Origin: Tichowtungia aerotolerans
Lineage (GTDB): Bacteria; Verrucomicrobiota; Kiritimatiellia; Kiritimatiellales; Tichowtungiaceae
Reading direction: 5' to 3'
DNA length: 64,000 nt
Assembly: GCF_009905215.1 (NCBI RefSeq)
Contig: NZ_CP047593.1
Span: 3,600,900 to 3,664,899, forward strand
The translations under genes and the position numbers were made by a program. The notes below the pieces were generated by a model. It had not been told where the DNA came from and made no database searches. It worked only from the letters and a program-made list of their open reading frames with translations. Of the stretch, positions 5,501 through 64,000 are shown one piece after another; position 1 is the first letter of the stretch, and each line of letters opens with the position of its first letter.

Positions 5501-6553
5501 GCTAATTCCACCAGACGCTGCCATAAACTGACAATTCAGGATATCCTCTGAATCTCCACTTAGACCGACAGAAACTACAGCATTGCTTGCGGTGGCAGCA
5601 GACAAATCCCAAGAATCAATACGCCATTCAATAATTACAACTCCATTAGTAATAGCTGCAAGAGGAGTGTGCGTCATCCATTGACTATGGCTCACATTCT
5701 CCAAATGAAGACTCCCTTCTCCATCTGTTACAGCATCTTCATCAATACCACTATTATATGACAAATGATCATTTCCAGTATTCTCTAAATTTTCGACAAC
5801 AGTTCCTTCTCGATCATTCATTGTATATTCGATAAAATATGGAGACGGTTCTATGTAAGTAACAGTATAATAATCCATTGAAATAAACTGGCCTGTCCCC
5901 CAACCGGATGATCCATTACTTGACAAAACAAATTTGTCGATACCTGGGAGCCCCCCCAGTGATCTAGCAGCACCAGCCGCAGTAAAACTTGTATCGCCAT
6001 CCCATTTCCAATAAAAATCATATAAACCAGCTTCGATATCTACATCAACTCGAACCACAATACCGATACCAGCGCTTATGAGCGGAATGGTTGCATCCAG
6101 CGGAGTTGATGTATTTTGCCCCCCGTCGGTACCTCCAAATACCGTAAACAACATACCGCCATAACTGTCGTGTCTTCTAAATGTCAGATTAAGAACATTA
6201 GCATCCCCTGTCTGCTGCACTAGCCAATTCACATTAGCAAGATTAGGCGCTGCAGACATATTCCATGAATCAAAACGCATCTCAATCCTATACAGACCGT
6301 TGTTCGAATATACCTGACTCAGAGGAAGCCCTGCTGCAGAGCTAAGTGTGTTGCTAAACACCAAATTTCCCGCACCATCCGTGACGGCCGGACGCACAGC
6401 TCCAAAAACAGCTGAATCCGACCCGGTCTGGCTTAGTCCATTCAGAGAAGTACCTGTGCCTTCATTCATTTGAAAGTCGATAAGCTGCGCCTGCAAAGAA
6501 GCATGTAGTAATACAACTACTACAAGTATTTTTGACCATATTTTATCTTTCAT
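2567..6553 (-). CDS. Secreted modular GH18 glycosidase with repeated beta-sandwich-like modules
   Basis: A 1328-residue secreted protein with a signal peptide (about 1-22) and a strong AGGGAGG ribosome site. Module order: two homologous modules of about 210 residues (about 23-450), a GH18 barrel (about 460-740), two almost identical modules (about 745-1165), then a C-terminal part with DDPDGDCLDNLSEYALGGDP, a thrombospondin-3/dockerin-like calcium motif. The GH18 catalytic signature DGVDIDWEYP is intact, followed by NIMAYDM and GVMIWDLGGD. GH18 enzymes cleave beta-1,4 linkages next to N-acetylglucosamine (chitinase or endo-N-acetylglucosaminidase). The ~210-residue modules are probably carbohydrate-binding or adhesive sandwich folds but match no family I can name. 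The last two arose by a recent duplication. Confidence 0.85.
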   Translation of the reverse strand: MKDKIWSKILVVVVLLHASLQAQLIDFQMNEGTGTSLNGLSQTGSDSAVFGAVRPAVTDGAGNLVFSNTLSSAAGLPLSQVYSNNGLYRIEMRFDSWNMSAAPNLANVNWLVQQTGDANVLNLTFRRHDSYGGMLFTVFGGTDGGQNTSTPLDATIPLISAGIGIVVRVDVDIEAGLYDFYWKWDGDTSFTAAGAARSLGGLPGIDKFVLSSNGSSGWGTGQFISMDYYTVTYIEPSPYFIEYTMNDREGTVVENLENTGNDHLSYNSGIDEDAVTDGEGSLHLENVSHSQWMTHTPLAAITNGVVIIEWRIDSWDLSAATASNAVVSVGLSGDSEDILNCQFMAASGGISIGSYATDGRAAGSTFIPFSNSETGVVIRVVLDLDARFYSSYWKYDTDSEFSRIVRGNAADVSKFTELVLCKLKGNSASWGLNQFVDIDYINVTLTNGASFGPPVTDYYGKHIVGYIPYYRNVERLIDYSQVTDVNYGHMMLSSAGDLDTSLVQFSRLSNLVENAHAANVNVLISCSDKKSGNFSSMASSVSGRTNFVSQIKQFCLDNNLDGVDIDWEYPYTSTDKVNYGELLELLDMSLSEDELLLTSAVSFGWMQDIPLAALQHLDWVNIMAYDMGLPDHSTFDDALSALANWESFGFPRNKVCLGVPFYGANTNGDLQAYFSLYDDQNPTPDVDVVNGYYFNGINTVRRKAMHVLKKGYLGVMIWDLGGDKLNDSASLLTSIADTLSLSPPQVINFQMSETRGTSLNGLDQTGSDSATFGVARASIITDGDGNLIFTNMAAGSLATGLILDQSYTGQYRAEIRFDSWDMSSAPDMSSVDWLMQQTGDANVLYLKFRRMDSFDGMAFSVIAEGGQSTSTPDISGGAIPLVSTEGLTVRVDFDTVVGLYDVYWKFDSDVAFTAAGTNRKLTLPCMNKMIVTGTGEGASWGGGQFVAIDSYSVTYIEPLLDFQMSETRETSLSGLDQTGSDSATFGVARAGIITDGDGNLIFTNMAAGSLATGLILDQSYAGQYRAEIRFDSWDMSSAPDMSSVDWLMQQTGDANVLYLKFRRMDSFDGMAFSVIAEGGQSTSTPDISGGAIPLVSTEGLTVRVDFDTVVGLYDVYWKFDSDVGFNTAGVSRILTLPSINKMILTGVGDGAAWGSGQYISMDYYTVTCIENMMGVVGETVCAESMDQFNPLDFYNRWVADYLGLSDRVGLLDDPDGDCLDNLSEYALGGDPGNNEDIGIAGDVALTTDSGTNYFEYTYRKRRDAVARGLSYYLEKNLDLVSGLWTNLDYEVMGVTSIDDNFDIITNSIPVNVDSEKLFIRLRIEGFGF
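3184..4309. repeat. Near-identical tandem duplication of 487 bp inside the GH18 modular gene
   Basis: Positions 3184-3670 and 3823-4309 are nearly identical over 487 bp, 639 bp apart, and each encodes most of one beta-sandwich-like module. Only scattered substitutions separate them, whereas the N-terminal modules of the same protein are clearly diverged. This is a recent in-frame module duplication. Confidence 0.9.
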
Positions 6554-6643
6554 TACCTAACCTCCCTACAGACAAGAACATCTGTCGAACCTTAATAGAC
6601 ACGCAAAACAACACACTGATTATTTCGACATGGCTTTGGAATG

Positions 6644-8401
6644 TTAGAAATCAGATTTAATTCTGAGTCGTAAAAACATGTTAGCGTCACTACCTATTAC
6701 AATACGATTAGTTATCGTTTCAAAATCTGTATCAACTATACCAACCCCCATAACCTCATAGTCGAGATTAGTCCACAAACCAGACACTAAATCTAAATTT
6801 TTCTCTAAATAATAGCTAAGACCACGTGCGGCAGCATCGCTACGCTTCCTATAGGTATATTCAAAATAATTAGTTCCACTATCTGTCGTCAGAGCAACAT
6901 CTCCAGCAATTCCAATATCTTCATTATTACCCGGATCTCCACCCAAAGCATATTCTGAAAGATTGTCTAGACAGTCCCCATCCGGATCATCTAATAGACC
7001 TACACTGCCAGCTATCCCATAACTCGCAGCCCAACTAGCGTAAAAATCAGCAGGACCAAAACCAATACCGTTAGTCAATGTTACATTGATGTAATCAATA
7101 TTTACAAACTGCCCCTCTCCCCAACTAGCGGAATCTCCTTTAAGTTTATATAAATCAAATCGTGAAAAAACGGTAACATTCCCCATACTTCCAAGAACAA
7201 TCTGTGTAAAATCAGCGTCTGTATCATATTTCCAATATGAGGCGTAAAGTCCGCTGTCAAAATCCAAAACAGTCCGCAAAACTACCCCAGTTGTCCCTGT
7301 AAGCGATACAAGCGTATTACCTGCTGAACCTTCGCCTGTTGCATATGACCCAAGACTGACATAATTAGAAATTACCGCAAATTGACAATCGACAATCACT
7401 CCAGGCCCCTCAGCAACACCAACAGAAACTACAGCATTGCTTGCGGTGGCAGCAGACAAATCCCAAGAATCAACACGCCATTCAACAATCACAACCCCAT
7501 TAGAAATAGCCGTAAGTGGAGTGTGCTTCACCCAACGATCAACACTCACATTCTCAAATCGCAAATTCCCATTTCCATCCGTGACCGCATCATCATCAAC
7601 AAAATCAGCATAAGAAGAGTGATCATTCCCGGTATTCTTCAAATCTCCAATCGCTGTTCCGGCCGAATCATTCATTGTATATTCGATAAAATATGGAGAC
7701 GGTTCTATGTAAGCAACAGTATAATAATCCATTGCGATAAACTGTCCTTCTCCCCATGTGACATTACCACTTGACAAAACCATTTTATTGATACTGGGAA
7801 GTCCACCTAAAGATCGAGCAATACCAGCTGTTCTAAAATCTGAATCCGTATCCCATTTCCAATAAAAATCATATAAACCAGCTTCGATATCGACATCAAC
7901 TCGAACCACAATACCGGTACCAGCGCTTATGAGCGGAATGGTTGCATCCAGCGGAGTTGATGTATTTTGCCCCCCTTCGGTACCTCCAAATACCGTAAAC
8001 AACATACCGCCATAACTGTCGTGTCTTCTGAATGTCAGATTAAGAACATTGGCATCCCCTGTCTGCTGCACTAGCCAATTCACATTAGCAAGAGTAAGCG
8101 CTGCAGACATATTCCATGAATCAAAACGCATTTCAATCCTATACAGACCGCTGTTCGAATATACCTGACTCAGAGGAAGCCCTGCTGCAGTGCTAAGTGT
8201 GTTGCTAAACACCAAATTTCCTGCACCATCCGTGATAGCCGGACGCACAGCTCCAAAAACAGCTGAATCCGATCCGGTCTGGCTTAGTCCACTCAGAGAA
8301 GTACCTGTGCCTTCATTCATTTGAAAATCAATAAGCTGCGCCTGCAAACCTCCTCCAACAATGACCATAAAGATTGTTACCCATACATGTTTTTTTATCA
8401 T
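6644..8401 (-). CDS. Secreted modular protein, paralog of the neighbouring GH18 protein without the catalytic domain
   Basis: I start at the ATG at 8401 (MIKKHVWVTIFMV) because GGGGAG lies six bases upstream; an upstream ATG (8425) has no such site. After a signal peptide come two modules of about 210 residues homologous to modules 1 and 2 of the 1328-residue neighbour, then the same C-terminal segment with DDPDGDCLDNLSEYALGGDP. There is no GH18 domain. Parts of the nucleotide sequence are almost identical to the neighbour (for example 6750-7000 against 2690-2940), pointing to recent duplication or gene conversion. Probably a secreted glycan-binding partner; this is inference from context. 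Confidence 0.7.
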   Translation of the reverse strand: MIKKHVWVTIFMVIVGGGLQAQLIDFQMNEGTGTSLSGLSQTGSDSAVFGAVRPAITDGAGNLVFSNTLSTAAGLPLSQVYSNSGLYRIEMRFDSWNMSAALTLANVNWLVQQTGDANVLNLTFRRHDSYGGMLFTVFGGTEGGQNTSTPLDATIPLISAGTGIVVRVDVDIEAGLYDFYWKWDTDSDFRTAGIARSLGGLPSINKMVLSSGNVTWGEGQFIAMDYYTVAYIEPSPYFIEYTMNDSAGTAIGDLKNTGNDHSSYADFVDDDAVTDGNGNLRFENVSVDRWVKHTPLTAISNGVVIVEWRVDSWDLSAATASNAVVSVGVAEGPGVIVDCQFAVISNYVSLGSYATGEGSAGNTLVSLTGTTGVVLRTVLDFDSGLYASYWKYDTDADFTQIVLGSMGNVTVFSRFDLYKLKGDSASWGEGQFVNIDYINVTLTNGIGFGPADFYASWAASYGIAGSVGLLDDPDGDCLDNLSEYALGGDPGNNEDIGIAGDVALTTDSGTNYFEYTYRKRSDAAARGLSYYLEKNLDLVSGLWTNLDYEVMGVGIVDTDFETITNRIVIGSDANMFLRLRIKSDF

Positions 8402-8785
8402 AGCTCTCCCCAATTTCACATACACTACGTTGTGTAAGCGGTTTTAAACTAAAGTAGTGTTTAAAGCTCAGGTTTTAAATGCCTAAACCATCAAAAAAAA
8501 TACTCATTATTCATATTTCATGATCAACTCTTGAATGATACAGTTACTTATAATTTTAAGATTATTGTTGCAAAGAAGCAACGTTTGAGAATTTGAACCA
8601 CCGATTAAGTTAGTTTTTGTGAATAGCTTTTGAACATGAAAAAGACAGAAACTATAGTGAAAATATATGGAAAAATAATGCTCAAACAGGCTTCTAAGTC
8701 TTTAAGTATGAAAACATTTATCTCACCGGATGGATGCCTGACCTAGACATTGAAGCGTATATGCGCTACACCTCAAGCGTCGCCA
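8402..8785. other. Intergenic region upstream of the modular-protein genes
   Basis: About 380 bp of AT-rich sequence with no convincing ORF. It must hold the promoter of the minus-strand gene starting at 8401, but no clear -35/-10 pair could be fixed. Near 8749-8782 a short stretch (ATTGAAGCGTATATG-CGCTACA) matches positions about 641-668 inside the IS3 orfB remnant, so it is a scrap of the same kind of transposase. Confidence 0.5.
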
Positions 8786-9097
8786 TTAGCTAAAGCGCGA
8801 ATAAGGGTCCAGCCAAGTGAGCGCTTCCAGCTTGGGGCCACATGCGGGGCAAAGCATTCGCCGTCGTGTAATCATCAGCCATGTTGTCTTCCCGAAGACC
8901 GGAAGTTCACGTATCCACTGGATGGTTGAGTCATGGACAGTGTGAGATAGCGACCCGCAACCACTGCAACGGCCAGAGCCATTTTCTGCTGTCAACTCGA
9001 TCCATACTTCGGACGGATCCCCTGGGGCCGGCCCCACTGTTCCGACACGGAACCCTTCCCATTCACCGAGAATTTTGAGTATCTTTTGAGCGGTCAT
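8786..9097 (-). pseudogene. ISL3-family transposase, N-terminal zinc-finger fragment
   Basis: The reading frame from MTAQKILKILGEWEGFRV shows the N-terminal zinc-binding domain of ISL3-type transposases: CSGCGSLSHTVHD, then a WIRELPVFGK segment, then RRRMLCPACG and WLDPYSRF. Full transposases run to about 400 residues or more; here the frame stops after about 103 codons at the junction with an IS3 scrap. The in-frame extension to 9214 has no family match. A dead fragment. Confidence 0.75.
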
Positions 9098-56677: not shown

Positions 56678-56751
56678 CCGCGCAATGTACAAAACCCACC
56701 GCCTCCTGAGAACCCGGAATATTCGGAATTTTAAAACCGACTGATTCACTG

Positions 56752-58040
56752 GCGGAAATCATCTCGAAGAACTGTCAATCCACAACTACACATATGACGC
56801 CACGAATACCGCACCGTTGGAAATCATCTCGAAGAACTGTCAATCCACAACCTGGATGTTTGGATTGATGAAACAGGTCCTGTTGGAAATCATCTCGAAG
56901 AACTGTCAATCCACAACAGTACCACACCGATAGCGAGGACGGTAAAAGTTGGAAATCATCTCGAAGAACTGTCAATCCACAACGACGAGCAGCTTTCCGC
57001 GCTGAAGTCTCAGGGTTGGAAATCATCTCGAAGAACTGTCAATCCACAACTTGCCCATGCGCTGATTAAATCCACCACCGGTTGGAAATCATCTCGAAGA
57101 ACTGTCAATCCACAACCGGGCGCGGAATTATAAAGACGGCGTTTTAGTTGGAAATCATCTCGAAGAACTGTCAATCCACAACGTCTCGCAACCGAACGAA
57201 TCACCGGTGACCGTTGGAAATCATCTCGAAGAACTGTCAATCCACAACTCTGTTCAGGCTCTTTATCAGCGAGTTCGCGTTGGAAATCATCTCGAAGAAC
57301 TGTCAATCCACAACTGGAAACGATGACCTAAACACAGCACATGCGTTGGAAATCATCTCGAAGAACTGTCAATCCACAACTAATGGTTACTCTAACGTCT
57401 GGACCGTTGCGTTGGAAATCATCTCGAAGAACTGTCAATCCACAACCCGGAAATTGTTCTTTTTGGTGTTGGGAATGTTGGAAATCATCTCGAAGAACTG
57501 TCAATCCACAACAGGATGGATTCAAACCGTCTTGGAAACAAAGTTGGAAATCATCTCGAAGAACTGTCAATCCACAACCGCCTTACAGAGATCGCAAACC
57601 TGACATGGGTTGGAAATCATCTCGAAGAACTGTCAATCCACAACCGAAAGCAGGCCGCGCTAAACAGCGCAAGCGTTGGAAATCATCTCGAAGAACTGTC
57701 AATCCACAACCCTTTACCGGTACTCCGTTCATATGCCTCAGTTGGAAATCATCTCGAAGAACTGTCAATCCACAACCGGCCGGTGAACTGGTGATTGAAC
57801 AGTCCTGTTGGAAATCATCTCGAAGAACTGTCAATCCACAACGTCAACCGGCAGCTCATGCCAGTGGATATTGTTGGAAATCATCTCGAAGAACTGTCAA
57901 TCCACAACCCTGAATATGGCCCAAGAAACCGGCGAACCGTTGGAAATCATCTCGAAGAACTGTCAATCCACAACCCAAGAATGCTTGTAGGCCATCCTGT
58001 TTTAGTTGGAAATCATCTCGAAGAACTGTCAATCCACAAC
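56752..58040 (-). CRISPR. Type II-C CRISPR array, 20 repeats and 19 spacers
   Basis: Repeats are 36 bp. In crRNA orientation (minus strand) each begins GTTGTGGATTGACAGTTC and ends TTCGAGATGATTTCCAAC. Spacers are 30 bp except the first (29), third (29) and fourth (31) counted from 56752. All repeats look identical except the one at 56752-56787, which has two changed bases at its outer end (GC in place of TT on +), as expected for the oldest, leader-distal repeat. The minus-strand direction is fixed by the tracrRNA anti-repeat at 63921. Spacer sources cannot be determined here. Confidence 0.98.
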
Positions 58041-58172
58041 ATAGGCCCCATATCCCTCTCGTTTTCAATCATTTACCCATTGGATATCGGGCAAAAACGA
58101 ACGAGCTACCCATGAAGTGGATCGCGATCTTCCGGTTTTCAGTTATCAAATATCAAAGAAATCCAAGTCCAT
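58041..58172 (-). promoter_or_regulatory. CRISPR leader
   Basis: The 132 bp between cas2 and the first (newest) repeat. Minus-strand transcription from here runs into the array. It is more AT-rich than the surroundings. No sure -35/-10 could be named. The placement follows from the degenerate repeat at the opposite end and from tracrRNA complementarity. Confidence 0.75.
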
Positions 58173-58511
58173 CTAGAAAAATTCCAGCTGACTTGGCTTC
58201 GGAGGGAGAGGCGTTGTCGCCTCTCCCCAAAAATTAATGATGTCGCCGTATTGCTTGTCGGTAATTCGCAGAATACTGACCTGCCCCTTCTTGGGAACCA
58301 TACTGTTAACCCGCTTGGTGTGAACATCCGCACTCTCTTTACTCCCGCAGTGCCGGGTATAAACCGAGTATTGCATCATGGTGAAGCCGTCTTTCATCAA
58401 CCGCTTACGAAACGCGGAAGCGTTATGGCGCTCTTTTTTCGTGTTCGTCGGCAAATCAAAAAATACGAACAGCCACATGATTTTATACGCGTTAAGCCGC
58501 ACCTCCGACAT
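58173..58511 (-). CDS. cas2: Cas2, spacer-acquisition subunit
   Basis: 112 residues. The ferredoxin-like core begins MWLFVFFDLPTNTKKERHNA with the conserved Asp after the first strand, followed by FRKRLMKDGFTMMQYSVYTR and QVSILRITDKQYGDI. Cas2 dimers bridge Cas1 dimers for spacer integration. It overlaps the cas1 end by 20 bp, so they are translated together. It is the last gene before the leader. Confidence 0.97.
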   Translation of the reverse strand: MSEVRLNAYKIMWLFVFFDLPTNTKKERHNASAFRKRLMKDGFTMMQYSVYTRHCGSKESADVHTKRVNSMVPKKGQVSILRITDKQYGDIINFWGEATTPLPPKPSQLEFF

Positions 58512-59415
58512 TTTGCACCGCCTTCATAACCGGATAATCCACTTTCTTTTGCGTCCCACCGACACAACGCGCCAGCGAGGCGGTTGTGGTCGACAGACCA
58601 ACCATCAGGGGCCGCAAGGTGTTCGTGAGATGAACATCTGAGGCCAGCAGCTTGAGTAACTGCTGCTTGTGCTCCCGAGTGAGTTCTTCAATCGGCTCTT
58701 CGGTTTCTTTCCAAATATTGTAAACGATATCATCGGCATAAGGCCGATACGGTTCCATCACGTCATCCGCCAAGGCATAGGCGTTATATTTATTGTGATG
58801 ATGAATCCCAATAGCGGGATAAAGCCCCGACCCAACCAGTGACCGGGCAACCGCCGCACGCAGAATCGCGTAGACATAATTGAGCAAATGATTGGGCGCG
58901 CCACCGAACCGCTCCCTGCGAAAATTATCGCCAAACAGATTCTGCCAATAAATCCGGGCGGCCGCACCTTCCCGGTTGTCGGCATCGCCGCTTTTTACAC
59001 TAGCGGCATACCGGCGCAGCGCCTCCACTCCGCCGGATCCTGTCCGCTCCAGCATGGCGGCCTGATTCTTAATCTTCATTTCAACCGTCTGCTTCCACAA
59101 TTGCTTCTTGAGCGGTTCAGACATCTCCAGCTGTGCGGCAAGCGTTTCGGCATGAGTTGTGTTGCCGTCAAACGGAACGCTCATTGCCGCCGGATGGTGC
59201 AGCTTATCGCAAAAAACAATCGCGGCATTGTTCGCCGTCAACTCTTCGATCAATCGAAGCGACAATGTAATACTATGGTTGTCCAGCACCACAAAACCAA
59301 TATCCTCCACCGGAACCGTCCGCACCTCGCCCTCCGGTTTCGGCGTATAAACCAGTTGCCCATTCTTAAACGAAAGGTGCGCCGATGATTCAAAACAGAC
59401 CGTGCGCTTTAGCAT
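58492..59415 (-). CDS. cas1: Cas1, spacer-acquisition integrase
   Basis: 307 residues, normal for type II Cas1. The metal-binding residues sit in the segments REGAAARIYWQNLFG (Glu), YPAIGIHHHNKYNAYALADD (His, Asp) and VMEPYRPYADD. The N-terminal beta domain reads GQLVYTPKPEGEVRTVPVED. It integrates new spacers at the leader-proximal repeat with Cas2. It starts 2 bp after the cas9 stop codon, so it belongs to a cas9-cas1-cas2 operon. No csn2 or cas4 is present. Confidence 0.98.
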   Translation of the reverse strand: MLKRTVCFESSAHLSFKNGQLVYTPKPEGEVRTVPVEDIGFVVLDNHSITLSLRLIEELTANNAAIVFCDKLHHPAAMSVPFDGNTTHAETLAAQLEMSEPLKKQLWKQTVEMKIKNQAAMLERTGSGGVEALRRYAASVKSGDADNREGAAARIYWQNLFGDNFRRERFGGAPNHLLNYVYAILRAAVARSLVGSGLYPAIGIHHHNKYNAYALADDVMEPYRPYADDIVYNIWKETEEPIEELTREHKQQLLKLLASDVHLTNTLRPLMVGLSTTTASLARCVGGTQKKVDYPVMKAVQNVGGAA

Positions 59416-59417
59416 GC

Positions 59418-62400
59418 CTACACTCCCTTGAATTCGATCTCGCCGAGAACACTCAAGTTGAAATGAACTCCCTCAACAGCAATATTCATATTGTTGTAAG
59501 AAATACGCTGAAGAGGGTTGGGTGAATCAAAGTTAGCCTCTGATGGATATTTGGTTCCGCGATGCTTCTTATTTTCCAACTCTAAGTCGCCTTTTTTTCC
59601 CGAAACTAAATGGTGCCGAAACACCATTCTGGTCTCATTTTTAGACAGATCATTAATTTTAAACAAACGGATCGACAATTCTTCGAGAGACAACTGAGCC
59701 AACTCATTAACGCTTTTTTTACAAAAGAGCACAACCTGATCAACAAACAAGGCACGCTCAAACTCATACACACGCCCTTTTTTATCCTTTTTTGTTGCCG
59801 GAAACACCAACTTACTTTTTACCGCCTCCAGGCCTTCACACCCTTCATGAACAACACCACCGGCACCAACATAAAGACCTACTGCAGAAACCGTGGCATT
59901 TTCCGCATAAAAATACTGTTTATGCGGGTGATCATATTTTTTGGATTTATCGCGTTGTCTCTTAACAGCAAGAGGATCCTTCACAGTAGCAGCCCTACAA
60001 CGAACGCGCTTAATTGGCATTATCATCTTCCCGTTGATAAAAACGGGCTCATTCAATGCCTCTGGAAGACCCCATCCCTTTCTAACTCTATCCTTAATGA
60101 TTAGATCAATCGCCGAATTCTTCATGTAGATTTTAGCCTTAAGAGCCTCTGAAAAACTCAACTTATACTTCTTCATCAACAAGCGAGAAACGATCCCAAT
60201 CCGCTTCGCAACACCCCTATCAACAACTCTTGCTTTCAAATCATGTAGATTTTTAAAACCCTTCAACGCTTCATTGCTGCTCACTAATGGAACGCGCACA
60301 ACGGAAATCTCTTCACCTTCATGCAAAACGCGCCCGTAGAACGTATCTTTATGCAATCGCGCCCGTGCGGTTTGCTTTTTCTTCAGATCATTATTTGTCG
60401 CTCCAGCCTTTACCTTCTTCATAATATGCGATGGTAACACGCCGGATTGCTTTAACAGATTATTAGATGAAAAGTGCGAAACCAAAACCTCCTGCTCCAA
60501 CTGTTTAACACTGGGTATAAAACTCTCCCAAGGCTGCGGAACCAGAGTCGCCTTTCTTCCTCGCGCAAATTTTTCATCTTCCTTGCGCGTATAGAACTCC
60601 GCAAGTTGGTTGTATTGATACTTCGTCATACAGGCGATGACTAGAGCATCAATGCAATGATGCGTATGCTTTTCACGCGATTTCTTTTCCGCCAGTTGCA
60701 AGCCCCACTGTTTACGCAACTCCGCTACTGTTGCCCCATTCACGGTCATCACATTCTTAAAAATCGTCTGCAGATAGAAGCAGGCATATTTAGTAATAAT
60801 CCGCGTATCATTAAGCTGGCGGTTTGCAAACGTGTTCGGCACCTCTTTCATCGTAAAACGCTCATATTTCTTTGCGAAATGATCGCGTTCCAATTTCAGG
60901 CGATGCCGTTTCTGGATTATTTTTGCTTTTCGTTCCGGATCCGCGTTCCGTGCAGCGGAAACGGTTTTCTTTATCTCGCGCTCTAGATCTACACACCTCT
61001 CTTTCCAATGCTCAATCCGAGGAAGAATTTCTTCATGATTGTCGCACTCCGAAGGAATCCTGCTTTTCTTTATTTCACGATTATATTTCTTACAGCAGAG
61101 AGTCAGATTCTCTTCAGAATTGTCATAGGAACGAGAGCGCGGAAGGATGTGTTCGACCTCAAAACGAGGGTTATTACCGAGAAAATCAGCCAAACCAATG
61201 CTTTGCCCTGTGTATGGGCATTTCCGTTTCTGATCCTCCCAAAGCTCATATTTTAGCGTCTTCTGTTCAATCTCCTGATTACACTTCAACCATTCCCTTT
61301 CTGAATCATCGGGCAACAGCTCTTCCCACAATTTAAATTTAAAAAGGTCAGCATCTGTCGCCTCCTTCTTCATAAGGTTCTTTATAATCTGGGCATATTT
61401 CTTCCTGCGCTCTTCCCTCGCCTTATTGTCTGCCTCAATAACAGCCCGCATGTTTGCGGTGTTGAGCTCACGTGCCATTTCAATATGAATTTCAGTTTCA
61501 GGAAAAACTGTTTCGTCATGAATCAGAGCATTAACCACAGCACGAAGGCGGTGCATTGTGCGCATAAAGACAGGATTCTTTATGGAAGAAACAATCGGGC
61601 TTTCCAAAATCAGTTTGCCCGCCCGTACCGTTTCTGATTTTCGGTATGGATTGTGTTTAAGAACATCTGAAGGATGATACAACAGCGATGCTCGTTCGTT
61701 TGTGACCCCAAACTCTCCGACTAATATTTCACGCAAAACACTCTTTAGAGGCATCAGCTTTACCCAACGCCCCTCGTCCGCCTCAACCCGCCATTGCGTC
61801 TTTATCAATTCGGCAACCTTCCGGGAAAACAAAGCCTGTTCCTCATCCGAAAAAACAGACCACTCTTTTGCGCCAAATTTGGCCACAAATTTCAGTGCTA
61901 CTTTTTCATGAGAATCAGACACCTCCCTGAAGCACTCCTTCAACTCCTCCAATGAATCAAAATCAGAAATCAACTCGTTGGCCACTACAACTTGCTTCCG
62001 ATAAGCAGAATACGCACAAAACTTCTCTGAAAGAATATTTTTTACCGCATTGGCATCGACATCAGAACCGCGCAAAACAGCAGGAATATTCGCGAAGAGA
62101 ACGGCATGGGAATAAATCATGCCTTCTTTCAGGAGAGGAACAATTTTACACATCGCTCCCGCACTAAGAGAAGAATAGCCCCTCGTCAGCTTTATCTCCG
62201 AAAATGCGTCAGCAACTTCCTCTGAAAAATTCCAACTCTTCAACAACTGACGTTTCCGCTCTTGGGGATCTTCCCGAGAAAATAGAACACCCCAAACTTC
62301 CGTCAAAATATCACTGTCAGTTTTCTTGCGCCCTTTTACATTGTTAAACTTCCCTTTATAGGTAACAACAATCCTGTTTTGGTAATCCGCCCCAAAGACC

Positions 62401-63848
62401 TTACGGAACTGACTTAAAACAGGACACCCCGAGACCGATGTGTCCAATGCATAATTGACATAGAAATCGGCAGGCTGGTCCTTTTCATCCCGGACCCGCG
62501 CAACTGTTGCATTCTTTCCAAAAAGAACCCCGGCGATCTCGGAAAATTTAAAATAGGGCTTTGATTTGCGAAAAAACAGGTGCTCTATTTCTTTCTTCTG
62601 GTTCTCGGAAAGAAAATCCATCTCCGCATCACCAGCAGACTTGAATTTTATCTGGTTAATAAAACTCCACATCCGGAACTCTTCAAATATTGGGTGGGAC
62701 AACGGGGCGCATTTTTTACTGTATGTAATGGGAACCGATTTCCCAGTTTCATCAACTCGATATATCGGCTTGCCATCCCTAAACGCAGGTAACCGATATT
62801 CTAACGAACAACTTGCAACCAACCCTTTCTGCGATCTCAATGGACGCTGATAAAAAATCGCATCATAAAGCTTTTGCTTCAGTTCACCCTCTATTTCCTG
62901 AACCCGGCAAATTTCATCGAACTCCGCTTCATAGTGCTTTTCCCTATCAGTATATTGGCCTCGAATTTTCGTTCCGTCCCCATAACACTGATAAAAATAT
63001 TCCCCGATAGTTCGCGCATTTGCCTTTTCAATCTTCTGATCTAACTCATGAATTCCCTTTTGAACCTTCCCAAGGAACTCCGGCTTCTCCAGTACAGCTA
63101 TGCACTCACTATAAGCAGCACTAAAATCCGAGGTATTTCTTAAAATTCGGAGCAGCCTGTTCTTGAGCTTGCTCACCTTGCCCTTTGTGTCACCCGCCAA
63201 TTCCTCGATAATCTCAGAAACCTCTTCCGACGAATCGTGCTCACGCTCAAACTCTGACAGCAAAGTCGCATGAAACACGTCATATTCGTCATCACCCGCA
63301 TCAAGACTGTTGCTCTTGAACCCGCGACGTTGCGCCAAATGATAAAAAGCACGGCCTAAGTTGTTCCGCTCTGTTTCATTATCCCAATTAATCTTCCCCT
63401 CAATTGCATTAAACCGGAACAGATAAGGGTTCCGCATCACCTTATTCTTATTTTTGGAACTGAGATCATTGGTGTTCTGCCAATCCAGAAAAGCCTTGTC
63501 TTTGGGATATTCCTTATACCGTTTCTGTTGTTCTGCCTTCCGACCATACTGCCAAACATCCAAATCAACATCGGTTATCCCGGGGCACATCCCGTAATTA
63601 ACCAGAACCCGCAGTGTGTTTATCTTCCTGATGCGCCGTCGGTCATTTATCTTACGCGCACTTCGCTTTTCACGTCGCCCTGCCGCCTTTGATTTTCGAG
63701 CACCACCCTGCGCGACATCGTTCACCGCCTCCGGAAAAACATGGACGCCCTTTTTCACCAATTCGAACAGCCCATTACCAAAATCATCAACAACCGCCCA
63801 ACCAATGCTGTTCGTTCCCAAATCCAAGCCCAGAATGCGCTTACTCAT
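59418..63848 (-). CDS. cas9: Cas9 RNA-guided nuclease, type II-C, long form
   Basis: 1476 residues. RuvC-I ILGLDLGTNSIGWAVVDD has D9; an Arg-rich bridge helix (RREKRSARKINDRRRIRKI) follows at about 58-76; RuvC-II IHIEMAREL has E790; the HNH domain CPYTGQSIGLADF to FEVEHILPRSRSYDNSEENL has H900 and the Asn; RuvC-III HHCIDALVIACM has H1063 and D1067. All nuclease residues are present, so both strands should be cut at a matching target. At 1476 it is longer than compact II-C proteins (about 1000-1100) and nearer the long Bacteroidetes-type II-C forms. The PAM cannot be read from sequence. Confidence 0.98.
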   Translation of the reverse strand: MSKRILGLDLGTNSIGWAVVDDFGNGLFELVKKGVHVFPEAVNDVAQGGARKSKAAGRREKRSARKINDRRRIRKINTLRVLVNYGMCPGITDVDLDVWQYGRKAEQQKRYKEYPKDKAFLDWQNTNDLSSKNKNKVMRNPYLFRFNAIEGKINWDNETERNNLGRAFYHLAQRRGFKSNSLDAGDDEYDVFHATLLSEFEREHDSSEEVSEIIEELAGDTKGKVSKLKNRLLRILRNTSDFSAAYSECIAVLEKPEFLGKVQKGIHELDQKIEKANARTIGEYFYQCYGDGTKIRGQYTDREKHYEAEFDEICRVQEIEGELKQKLYDAIFYQRPLRSQKGLVASCSLEYRLPAFRDGKPIYRVDETGKSVPITYSKKCAPLSHPIFEEFRMWSFINQIKFKSAGDAEMDFLSENQKKEIEHLFFRKSKPYFKFSEIAGVLFGKNATVARVRDEKDQPADFYVNYALDTSVSGCPVLSQFRKVFGADYQNRIVVTYKGKFNNVKGRKKTDSDILTEVWGVLFSREDPQERKRQLLKSWNFSEEVADAFSEIKLTRGYSSLSAGAMCKIVPLLKEGMIYSHAVLFANIPAVLRGSDVDANAVKNILSEKFCAYSAYRKQVVVANELISDFDSLEELKECFREVSDSHEKVALKFVAKFGAKEWSVFSDEEQALFSRKVAELIKTQWRVEADEGRWVKLMPLKSVLREILVGEFGVTNERASLLYHPSDVLKHNPYRKSETVRAGKLILESPIVSSIKNPVFMRTMHRLRAVVNALIHDETVFPETEIHIEMARELNTANMRAVIEADNKAREERRKKYAQIIKNLMKKEATDADLFKFKLWEELLPDDSEREWLKCNQEIEQKTLKYELWEDQKRKCPYTGQSIGLADFLGNNPRFEVEHILPRSRSYDNSEENLTLCCKKYNREIKKSRIPSECDNHEEILPRIEHWKERCVDLEREIKKTVSAARNADPERKAKIIQKRHRLKLERDHFAKKYERFTMKEVPNTFANRQLNDTRIITKYACFYLQTIFKNVMTVNGATVAELRKQWGLQLAEKKSREKHTHHCIDALVIACMTKYQYNQLAEFYTRKEDEKFARGRKATLVPQPWESFIPSVKQLEQEVLVSHFSSNNLLKQSGVLPSHIMKKVKAGATNNDLKKKQTARARLHKDTFYGRVLHEGEEISVVRVPLVSSNEALKGFKNLHDLKARVVDRGVAKRIGIVSRLLMKKYKLSFSEALKAKIYMKNSAIDLIIKDRVRKGWGLPEALNEPVFINGKMIMPIKRVRCRAATVKDPLAVKRQRDKSKKYDHPHKQYFYAENATVSAVGLYVGAGGVVHEGCEGLEAVKSKLVFPATKKDKKGRVYEFERALFVDQVVLFCKKSVNELAQLSLEELSIRLFKINDLSKNETRMVFRHHLVSGKKGDLELENKKHRGTKYPSEANFDSPNPLQRISYNNMNIAVEGVHFNLSVLGEIEFKGV

Positions 63849-63920
63849 TTTTGACTCCCAACTTTCTATTGACTTCTATGTCTCTAAAATCTAAACATCA
63901 CCTTCGTGAGAGAAAGTAAT

Positions 63921-63994
63921 GAAGAACTGTCTTTTCACAATAAGGCTATATGCCGAAGGTCCTAGACCTTTACCCCGCTTCGGCGGGGTTTTTT
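63921..63994 (+). ncRNA. tracrRNA with anti-repeat, nexus hairpin and terminator
   Basis: Divergent from cas9. The anti-repeat GAAGAACTGTCTTTTCACAA-T (63921-63941) pairs with the crRNA repeat over 21 positions: 19 pairs (including G-U) around a 2-nt internal mismatch. Then AATAAGGC, the same junction text as in Neisseria-type tracrRNA, leads into a GGC-TATAT-GCC nexus (63944-63954), a GGTC-CTA-GACC hairpin (63958-63968) and the terminator CCCCGC-TTCG-GCGGGG plus six T (63973-63994). The 5' end probably lies some bases upstream (about 63900); TTGACT boxes at 63851 and 63869 are possible -35 elements. Confidence 0.92.
63973..63994 (+). terminator. Rho-independent terminator of the tracrRNA
   Basis: A six-pair GC stem CCCCGC/GCGGGG with a TTCG tetraloop, followed by six T. 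Confidence 0.95.
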
Positions 63995-64000
63995 ATTACC

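What the first reader, a model, noticed from the sequence alone, without database searches (positions are those of the whole stretch)
56752..63994. Complete type II-C CRISPR-Cas with an unusually long Cas9
Cas9 is 1476 residues with all RuvC and HNH residues, cas1 and cas2 follow with 2-bp spacing and a 20-bp overlap, the array has 20 repeats, and the tracrRNA is readable. Long II-C Cas9 proteins are known in Bacteroidetes-type lineages, but a set with every component visible outside that phylum would be a useful comparison. PAM and activity are unknown.
Basis: partly seen in the sequence, partly recalled or inferred. Interest (0 to 1): 0.7.

Follow-up and report, generated by a model that had tools for sequence, protein, structure and literature searches.

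The report
CRISPR-Cas9 locus with exchanged Cas9
This is an intact bacterial CRISPR-Cas9 immune system in which every part except the cutting enzyme matches its relatives closely, which suggests that the enzyme was exchanged in place while the guide-RNA parts and the stored phage memory were kept.

Summary
In detail: a complete type II-C locus (tracrRNA, 1476-aa Cas9, Cas1, Cas2, 20 repeats/19 spacers) in a closed 3.88-Mb Kiritimatiellota genome, probably Tichowtungia aerotolerans. What stands out is not the length (relatives run from 1195 to 1688 aa) but discordance between parts. Cas1 is 83-91% and Cas2 85-94% identical to those of Pontiella/Tichowtungia-type relatives, and repeat and tracrRNA are nearly the same, yet Cas9 is only 39-46% identical and sits on a very long branch. 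Nucleotide homology covers the tracrRNA gene and the first 65-128 nt of cas9, stops, and resumes near the cas9 stop codon through cas1, cas2 and the array. The same boundaries occur in Pontiella sulfatireligans (Bacteroidota-type 1534-aa Cas9) and in Bacteroidota pairs with 96-98% identical Cas1 but about 30% identical Cas9. The last ~360 residues group with two relatives whose Cas9 bodies differ, so the PAM-reading end is a separately exchanged block. In-situ Cas9 shuffling in II-C is already published (PMC12669027). New here: the Kiritimatiellota case, repeated breakpoints, retained tracrRNA, mosaic C-terminus. PAM and activity remain unknown; no protospacer was found.

The parts
56751..58040 (-). 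CRISPR array: 20 repeats (crRNA sense GTTGTGGATTGACAGTTCTTCGAGATGATTTCCAAC), 19 spacers
   Evidence: terminal repeat at 56751 is degenerate
58041..58172 (-). Leader between cas2 and the first repeat (inferred)
   Evidence: position; 75-85% DNA identity to relative L061, about 45-70% to the others
58173..58511 (-). cas2, 112 aa
   Evidence: TIGR01573, PF09827; 85-94% identical to relatives in the order
58492..59415 (-). cas1, 307 aa
   Evidence: TIGR03639, PF01867; 83-91% identical to relatives; inside the order's clade at 100/100
59418..63848 (-). cas9, 1476 aa, all RuvC and HNH catalytic residues
   Evidence: TIGR01865, PF13395, PF18541; 39-46% identical to Cas9s that sit beside near-identical Cas1
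63721..63848 (-). First 65-128 nt of cas9 (RuvC-I coding): still homologous at DNA level to relatives; proposed exchange boundary lies inside or just after it
63069..63290 (-). Residues 187-260: helical REC insert, present or absent among relatives
   Evidence: pLDDT about 72-90; alignment
59421..60503 (-). Residues 1116-1476: C-terminal (WED/PAM-interacting) block with a history separate from the body; strongest in residues 1351-1476
   Evidence: C-terminal tree groups it with L054/L055 at 100/99; body tree rejects that grouping, p-AU 2e-7; profile
63869..63897 (+). Conserved tracrRNA promoter TTGACT-17 nt-TAAACA (inferred)
   Evidence: read off the alignment of 12 relatives; no experimental support; the generic scan did not list it
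63904..63995 (+). tracrRNA: anti-repeat 63921-63941, nexus GGCTATATGCC, hairpin, terminator 63973-63989 with T tail (5' end inferred)

Best explanation
A complete, probably working type II-C CRISPR-Cas9 system. Shown by sequence: tracrRNA gene, repeat, cas1 and cas2 belong to one conserved frame shared across the Tichowtungia/Pontiella order, while the Cas9 body is a divergent orphan and its C-terminal block belongs to an allele class shared with relatives whose bodies differ. Inferred: the cas9 gene body was replaced in place by recombination, with one crossover in or near the conserved tracrRNA/RuvC-I-coding start and the other near the cas9 end or cas1; the C-terminal (PAM-reading) block was exchanged separately. 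Inferred from known type II biology: RNase III and Cas9 process the crRNA:tracrRNA pair, Cas9 cuts PAM-flanked targets, and Cas1-Cas2 add spacers at the cas2-side leader. A common tracrRNA scaffold across very different Cas9 proteins would let the enzyme be changed, to escape inhibitors or alter the PAM, without losing guide RNA and array.
For: Cas1 vs Cas9 identity to four relatives (L053, L058, L060, L062): 89-91% against 39-41%; to P. sulfatireligans (L067): Cas1 90%, Cas9 31%. Cas1 tree: window inside the order's clade 100/100; Cas9 trees: window outside the core clade on the longest or near-longest branch. DNA homology: tracrRNA plus first 65-128 nt of cas9, then only short conserved patches, then from the cas9 end through the array. 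Same pattern: L067/L058 (-100..+110, then the last 6 nt of cas9 onward); L128/L133 (98% over -178..+61, nothing inside cas9, 94% after it; Cas1 98%, Cas9 29%); L141/L150; L122/L138. tracrRNA core shared by Cas9s of 1095-1587 aa. C-terminal mosaic with AU rejection. The frame itself also moves: Cas1 is closer to the other family (89-91%) than to its own genus (83-86%), opposite to RpoB (81-82% and 87-90%).
Against: No donor of the window's Cas9 body was found: best identity about 45% in about 446 genomes of the phylum and 42% in 395 genomes of the class of a Bacteroidota relative. Body trees put it as weak sister of the order's own Cas9s (SH-aLRT 86-97), which also fits very fast divergence. 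Many comparison loci are metagenome-assembled, although the window (closed genome) and P. sulfatireligans (isolate) are not. Activity was not tested.
Confidence: 0.7

Rival explanations
1. Same locus by descent; the window's Cas9 simply evolved unusually fast (for example under pressure from anti-CRISPR proteins), with only its C-terminal block exchanged.
For: Body trees place it as sister of the order's Cas9s, SH-aLRT 86-97; no donor found.
Against: Branch 1.5 against 0.06-0.38 for most siblings, while flanking cas1 is not accelerated; identical boundaries in clear replacements such as L067 and L128/L133.
Confidence: 0.22
2. An ordinary II-C system inherited as one unit; the apparent discordance is an artefact of strongly conserved Cas1.
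For: Cas1 is generally more conserved than Cas9.
Against: Most other relatives with equal Cas1 identity have about 59-73% identical Cas9; Cas1 ranks relatives opposite to RpoB; nucleotide homology ends abruptly inside cas9.
Confidence: 0.05

Closest known systems
In-situ Cas9 shuffling in type II-C of Flavobacteriales (PMC12669027, Extended Data Fig. 9)
   Same: Closely related Cas1 beside distantly related Cas9 at the same locus
   Different: Here in Kiritimatiellota and Bacteroidales; adds nucleotide boundaries, retained tracrRNA scaffold and a separately exchanged C-terminal block. The legend and passages that I read do not mention tracrRNA for the shuffling; its supplement was not readable here.
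Type II-C systems of Pontiella/Tichowtungia relatives (L053-L062)
   Same: Gene order, repeat, tracrRNA, Cas1, Cas2
   Different: Cas9 body only 39-46% identical, and the window's is longer
CbCas9 (1442 aa; PDB 8iyq, 8wr4)
   Same: Long II-C Cas9; top structural hit of the C-terminal fragment
   Different: Weak sequence similarity (95 bits); no PcrIIC1-like accessory gene was noticed next to the locus, though none was searched for by profile
Dual-RNA/Cas9 exchangeability among orthologues (PMC3936727)
   Same: Treats Cas9 and dual-RNA as exchangeable parts
   Different: That study found exchange only between close relatives, and Cas9 and Cas1 trees in broad agreement; here nearly one scaffold accompanies Cas9s about 30% identical

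Membership tests
Type II-C CRISPR-Cas | Cas9 with RuvC and HNH domains | tested here: met
Type II-C CRISPR-Cas | Operon of cas9, cas1, cas2 only (no csn2, no cas4) | tested here: met
   nearest named neighbours are malQ and hsp33
Type II-C CRISPR-Cas | tracrRNA with anti-repeat to the array's repeat | tested here: met
   covariation in L055
Type II-C CRISPR-Cas | RNA-guided, PAM-dependent DNA cleavage | not testable with these tools
   needs biochemistry; no protospacer found
In-situ Cas9 shuffling (PMC12669027 rule: Cas1 in one 90% cluster, effectors in different 50% clusters) | Cas1 about 90% or more and Cas9 under 50% identical between loci | tested here: met
   window/L062: 91% and 41%. 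Pairwise identities were used, not their clustering
In-situ Cas9 shuffling | Same genomic site in the two genomes | tested here: inconclusive
   Window: flanking homology to relatives ends at about -150 and at the array. Met for L122/L138 and L141/L150, with upstream homology of 1.6-2.6 kb

The most novel reading that the evidence does not exclude
A single conserved tracrRNA:crRNA scaffold serves Cas9 proteins from deeply different clades (about 30% identical), so whole Cas9 genes, and separately their PAM-reading ends, circulate as exchangeable cassettes between tracrRNA and cas1 while array memory is kept. This would contradict the rule that Cas9 and dual-RNA work together only among close relatives.
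Probability: 0.5. Interest if true: 0.75.

Novelty: new member of a known kind. Interest (0 to 1): 0.5.

Why it matters
If the shared scaffold works with all these Cas9s, one guide RNA could be used with enzymes of many PAMs and sizes, and bacteria could change effector, to escape anti-CRISPR proteins or alter the PAM, without losing stored immunity. Isolates in this order with nearly the same Cas1 and tracrRNA but three kinds of Cas9 make that directly testable.

Tried and rejected
Protospacers and PAM: all 19 spacers against phages and 240 genomes of the class; the PAM-proximal 20-24 nt of seven spacers against IMG/VR; 50 spacers of four relatives with related C-termini against the order: only the arrays themselves matched. 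Search with the single Cas9 in the genome and viral collections found nothing. Rfam has no family above threshold. GC content: cas9 is poorer in GC than cas1 in the window and in nearly every relative checked, so it does not point to a donor. The structure models have low overall TM to solved Cas9 because domain placement is loose; used only for secondary structure and family. One AU test, window with L054+L055 on the full length, was not rejected (p 0.24); splitting body and C-terminus explained why.

Full report
Observation. The locus is as described. cas9 (59418-63848, -), cas1 (58492-59415, -) and cas2 (58173-58511, -) are intact with the stated 2-bp gap and 20-bp overlap, match curated type II families above cut-off, and are followed by 20 repeats and 19 spacers of 29-31 nt. 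The repeat and a divergently transcribed tracrRNA at 63904-63995 fold into the expected structure (z -8.6). Catalytic residues are present. It is the only such Cas9 in the genome.

Organism. The genome is one contig of 3.88 Mb. Relatives fetched by Cas1 include Pontiella sulfatireligans F21 and Pontiellaceae isolates. A published table gives T. aerotolerans 3.88, P. agarivorans 4.44, P. sulfatireligans 7.40 and P. desulfatans 8.66 Mb (PMC10880615), matching G000, G014, G024 and G025. The window is therefore probably Tichowtungia aerotolerans (inferred from size and kinship, not shown).

Length. Related II-C Cas9s run from 1195 to 1688 aa. Part of the window's extra length is a helical insert at residues 187-260, predicted with fair to good confidence, present in L058 and L059 but absent from the other relatives of the order, and present in several Bacteroidota Cas9s.

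Discordance. Cas1 is 83-91% and Cas2 85-94% identical to loci of the same order, but Cas9 39-46% (31% for P. sulfatireligans), while most of those other loci share 58-73% (one pair 87%) Cas9 identity with each other (L061 has a broken cas9 and lower values). The Cas1 tree puts the window inside the order (100/100) and inside a Pontiella-family group (97/91). Cas9 trees put it outside the order's core on the longest branch or nearly so. P. sulfatireligans has a Bacteroidota-type Cas9. RpoB shows the expected kinship (own genus 87-90%, other family 81-82%) and Cas1 the reverse (83-86% and 89-91%), so the frame itself also moves between families.

Boundaries. Nucleotide homology between the window and relatives runs from about -150 to +65..+128 of cas9, is lost apart from short conserved patches, and resumes at the last nucleotides of cas9 (earlier, about 245 nt before the end, for L054) through cas1, cas2, leader and array. 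P. sulfatireligans against L058: -100..+110, then the last 6 nt onward. Bacteroidota pairs repeat this sharply: L128/L133 98% over -178..+61 and 94% after cas9, with Cas1 98% but Cas9 29%; L141/L150; L122/L138. Among 96 loci, the 14 pairs with 96-100% Cas1 identity have a median Cas9 identity of 30%; these pairs are not independent, and the loci were chosen by similarity to one Cas1 set.

Shared scaffold. CACAATAAGGCTATATGCCGAAGG, allowing up to 4 substitutions and exact or nearly so in most, lies upstream of cas9 in 52 of 96 loci with Cas9s of 1095-1587 aa. Loci without it may use other scaffolds or be cut at contig ends; that was not followed. In some pairs (L141/L148) the upstream region changes too.

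Mosaic C-terminus. Residues 1351-1476 are 42-65% identical to L054, L055 and L061 but about 20-30% to most others. Trees of body and C-terminus disagree: the C-terminus joins window, L054 and L055 (100/99); the body rejects this (p-AU 2e-7). L054 and L056, sisters by body, carry different C-terminal classes. Since this region contains the PAM-interacting domain in known Cas9s, PAM is expected to follow the C-terminal class (inference).

Mechanism and rivals. In-place replacement is favoured (0.7) over very fast divergence (0.22), because tracrRNA on one side and cas1 on the other both belong to the order's frame while the middle does not, and because the same boundaries occur in clear replacements. 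No donor was found, which keeps the rival alive.

Novelty. In-situ Cas9 shuffling in II-C was reported for Flavobacteriales (PMC12669027), and module exchange in general earlier (PMC6452270). Dual-RNA and Cas9 were thought exchangeable only among close relatives (PMC3936727). This locus is a new member of a known kind; the retained scaffold and repeated breakpoints are the part worth testing. The literature search covered open-access papers only.

Noticed in passing
L061 (G010:C6), 6319-9029: cas9 split into two open pieces with stop codons between them, while cas2 and array look intact; cas1 also reads through a stop near its end: probably a decaying copy of the same system.
   Followed up: partly
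L055, 12921-15141: The cas1 reading frame runs into repeat sequence near its end and no cas2 was found between cas1 and the array: the adaptation genes look truncated by an array-side deletion.
   Followed up: no
L068, L069, L070: A second, distant type II lineage (Cas9 1028-1069 aa, Cas1 about 39% identical) occurs in the same order and class with different repeats.
   Followed up: no
L141, L148, L150, L153, L160: Bacteroidales loci (largely rumen metagenome assemblies) with Cas1 96-98% identical but Cas9s of several deep types; a good natural set for studying Cas9 exchange.
   Followed up: partly
L056/L058/L060 against L134: The other C-terminal Cas9 class of the order groups with a Bacteroidales Cas9 (100/99), suggesting exchange of the PAM-reading end across phyla.
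   Followed up: partly
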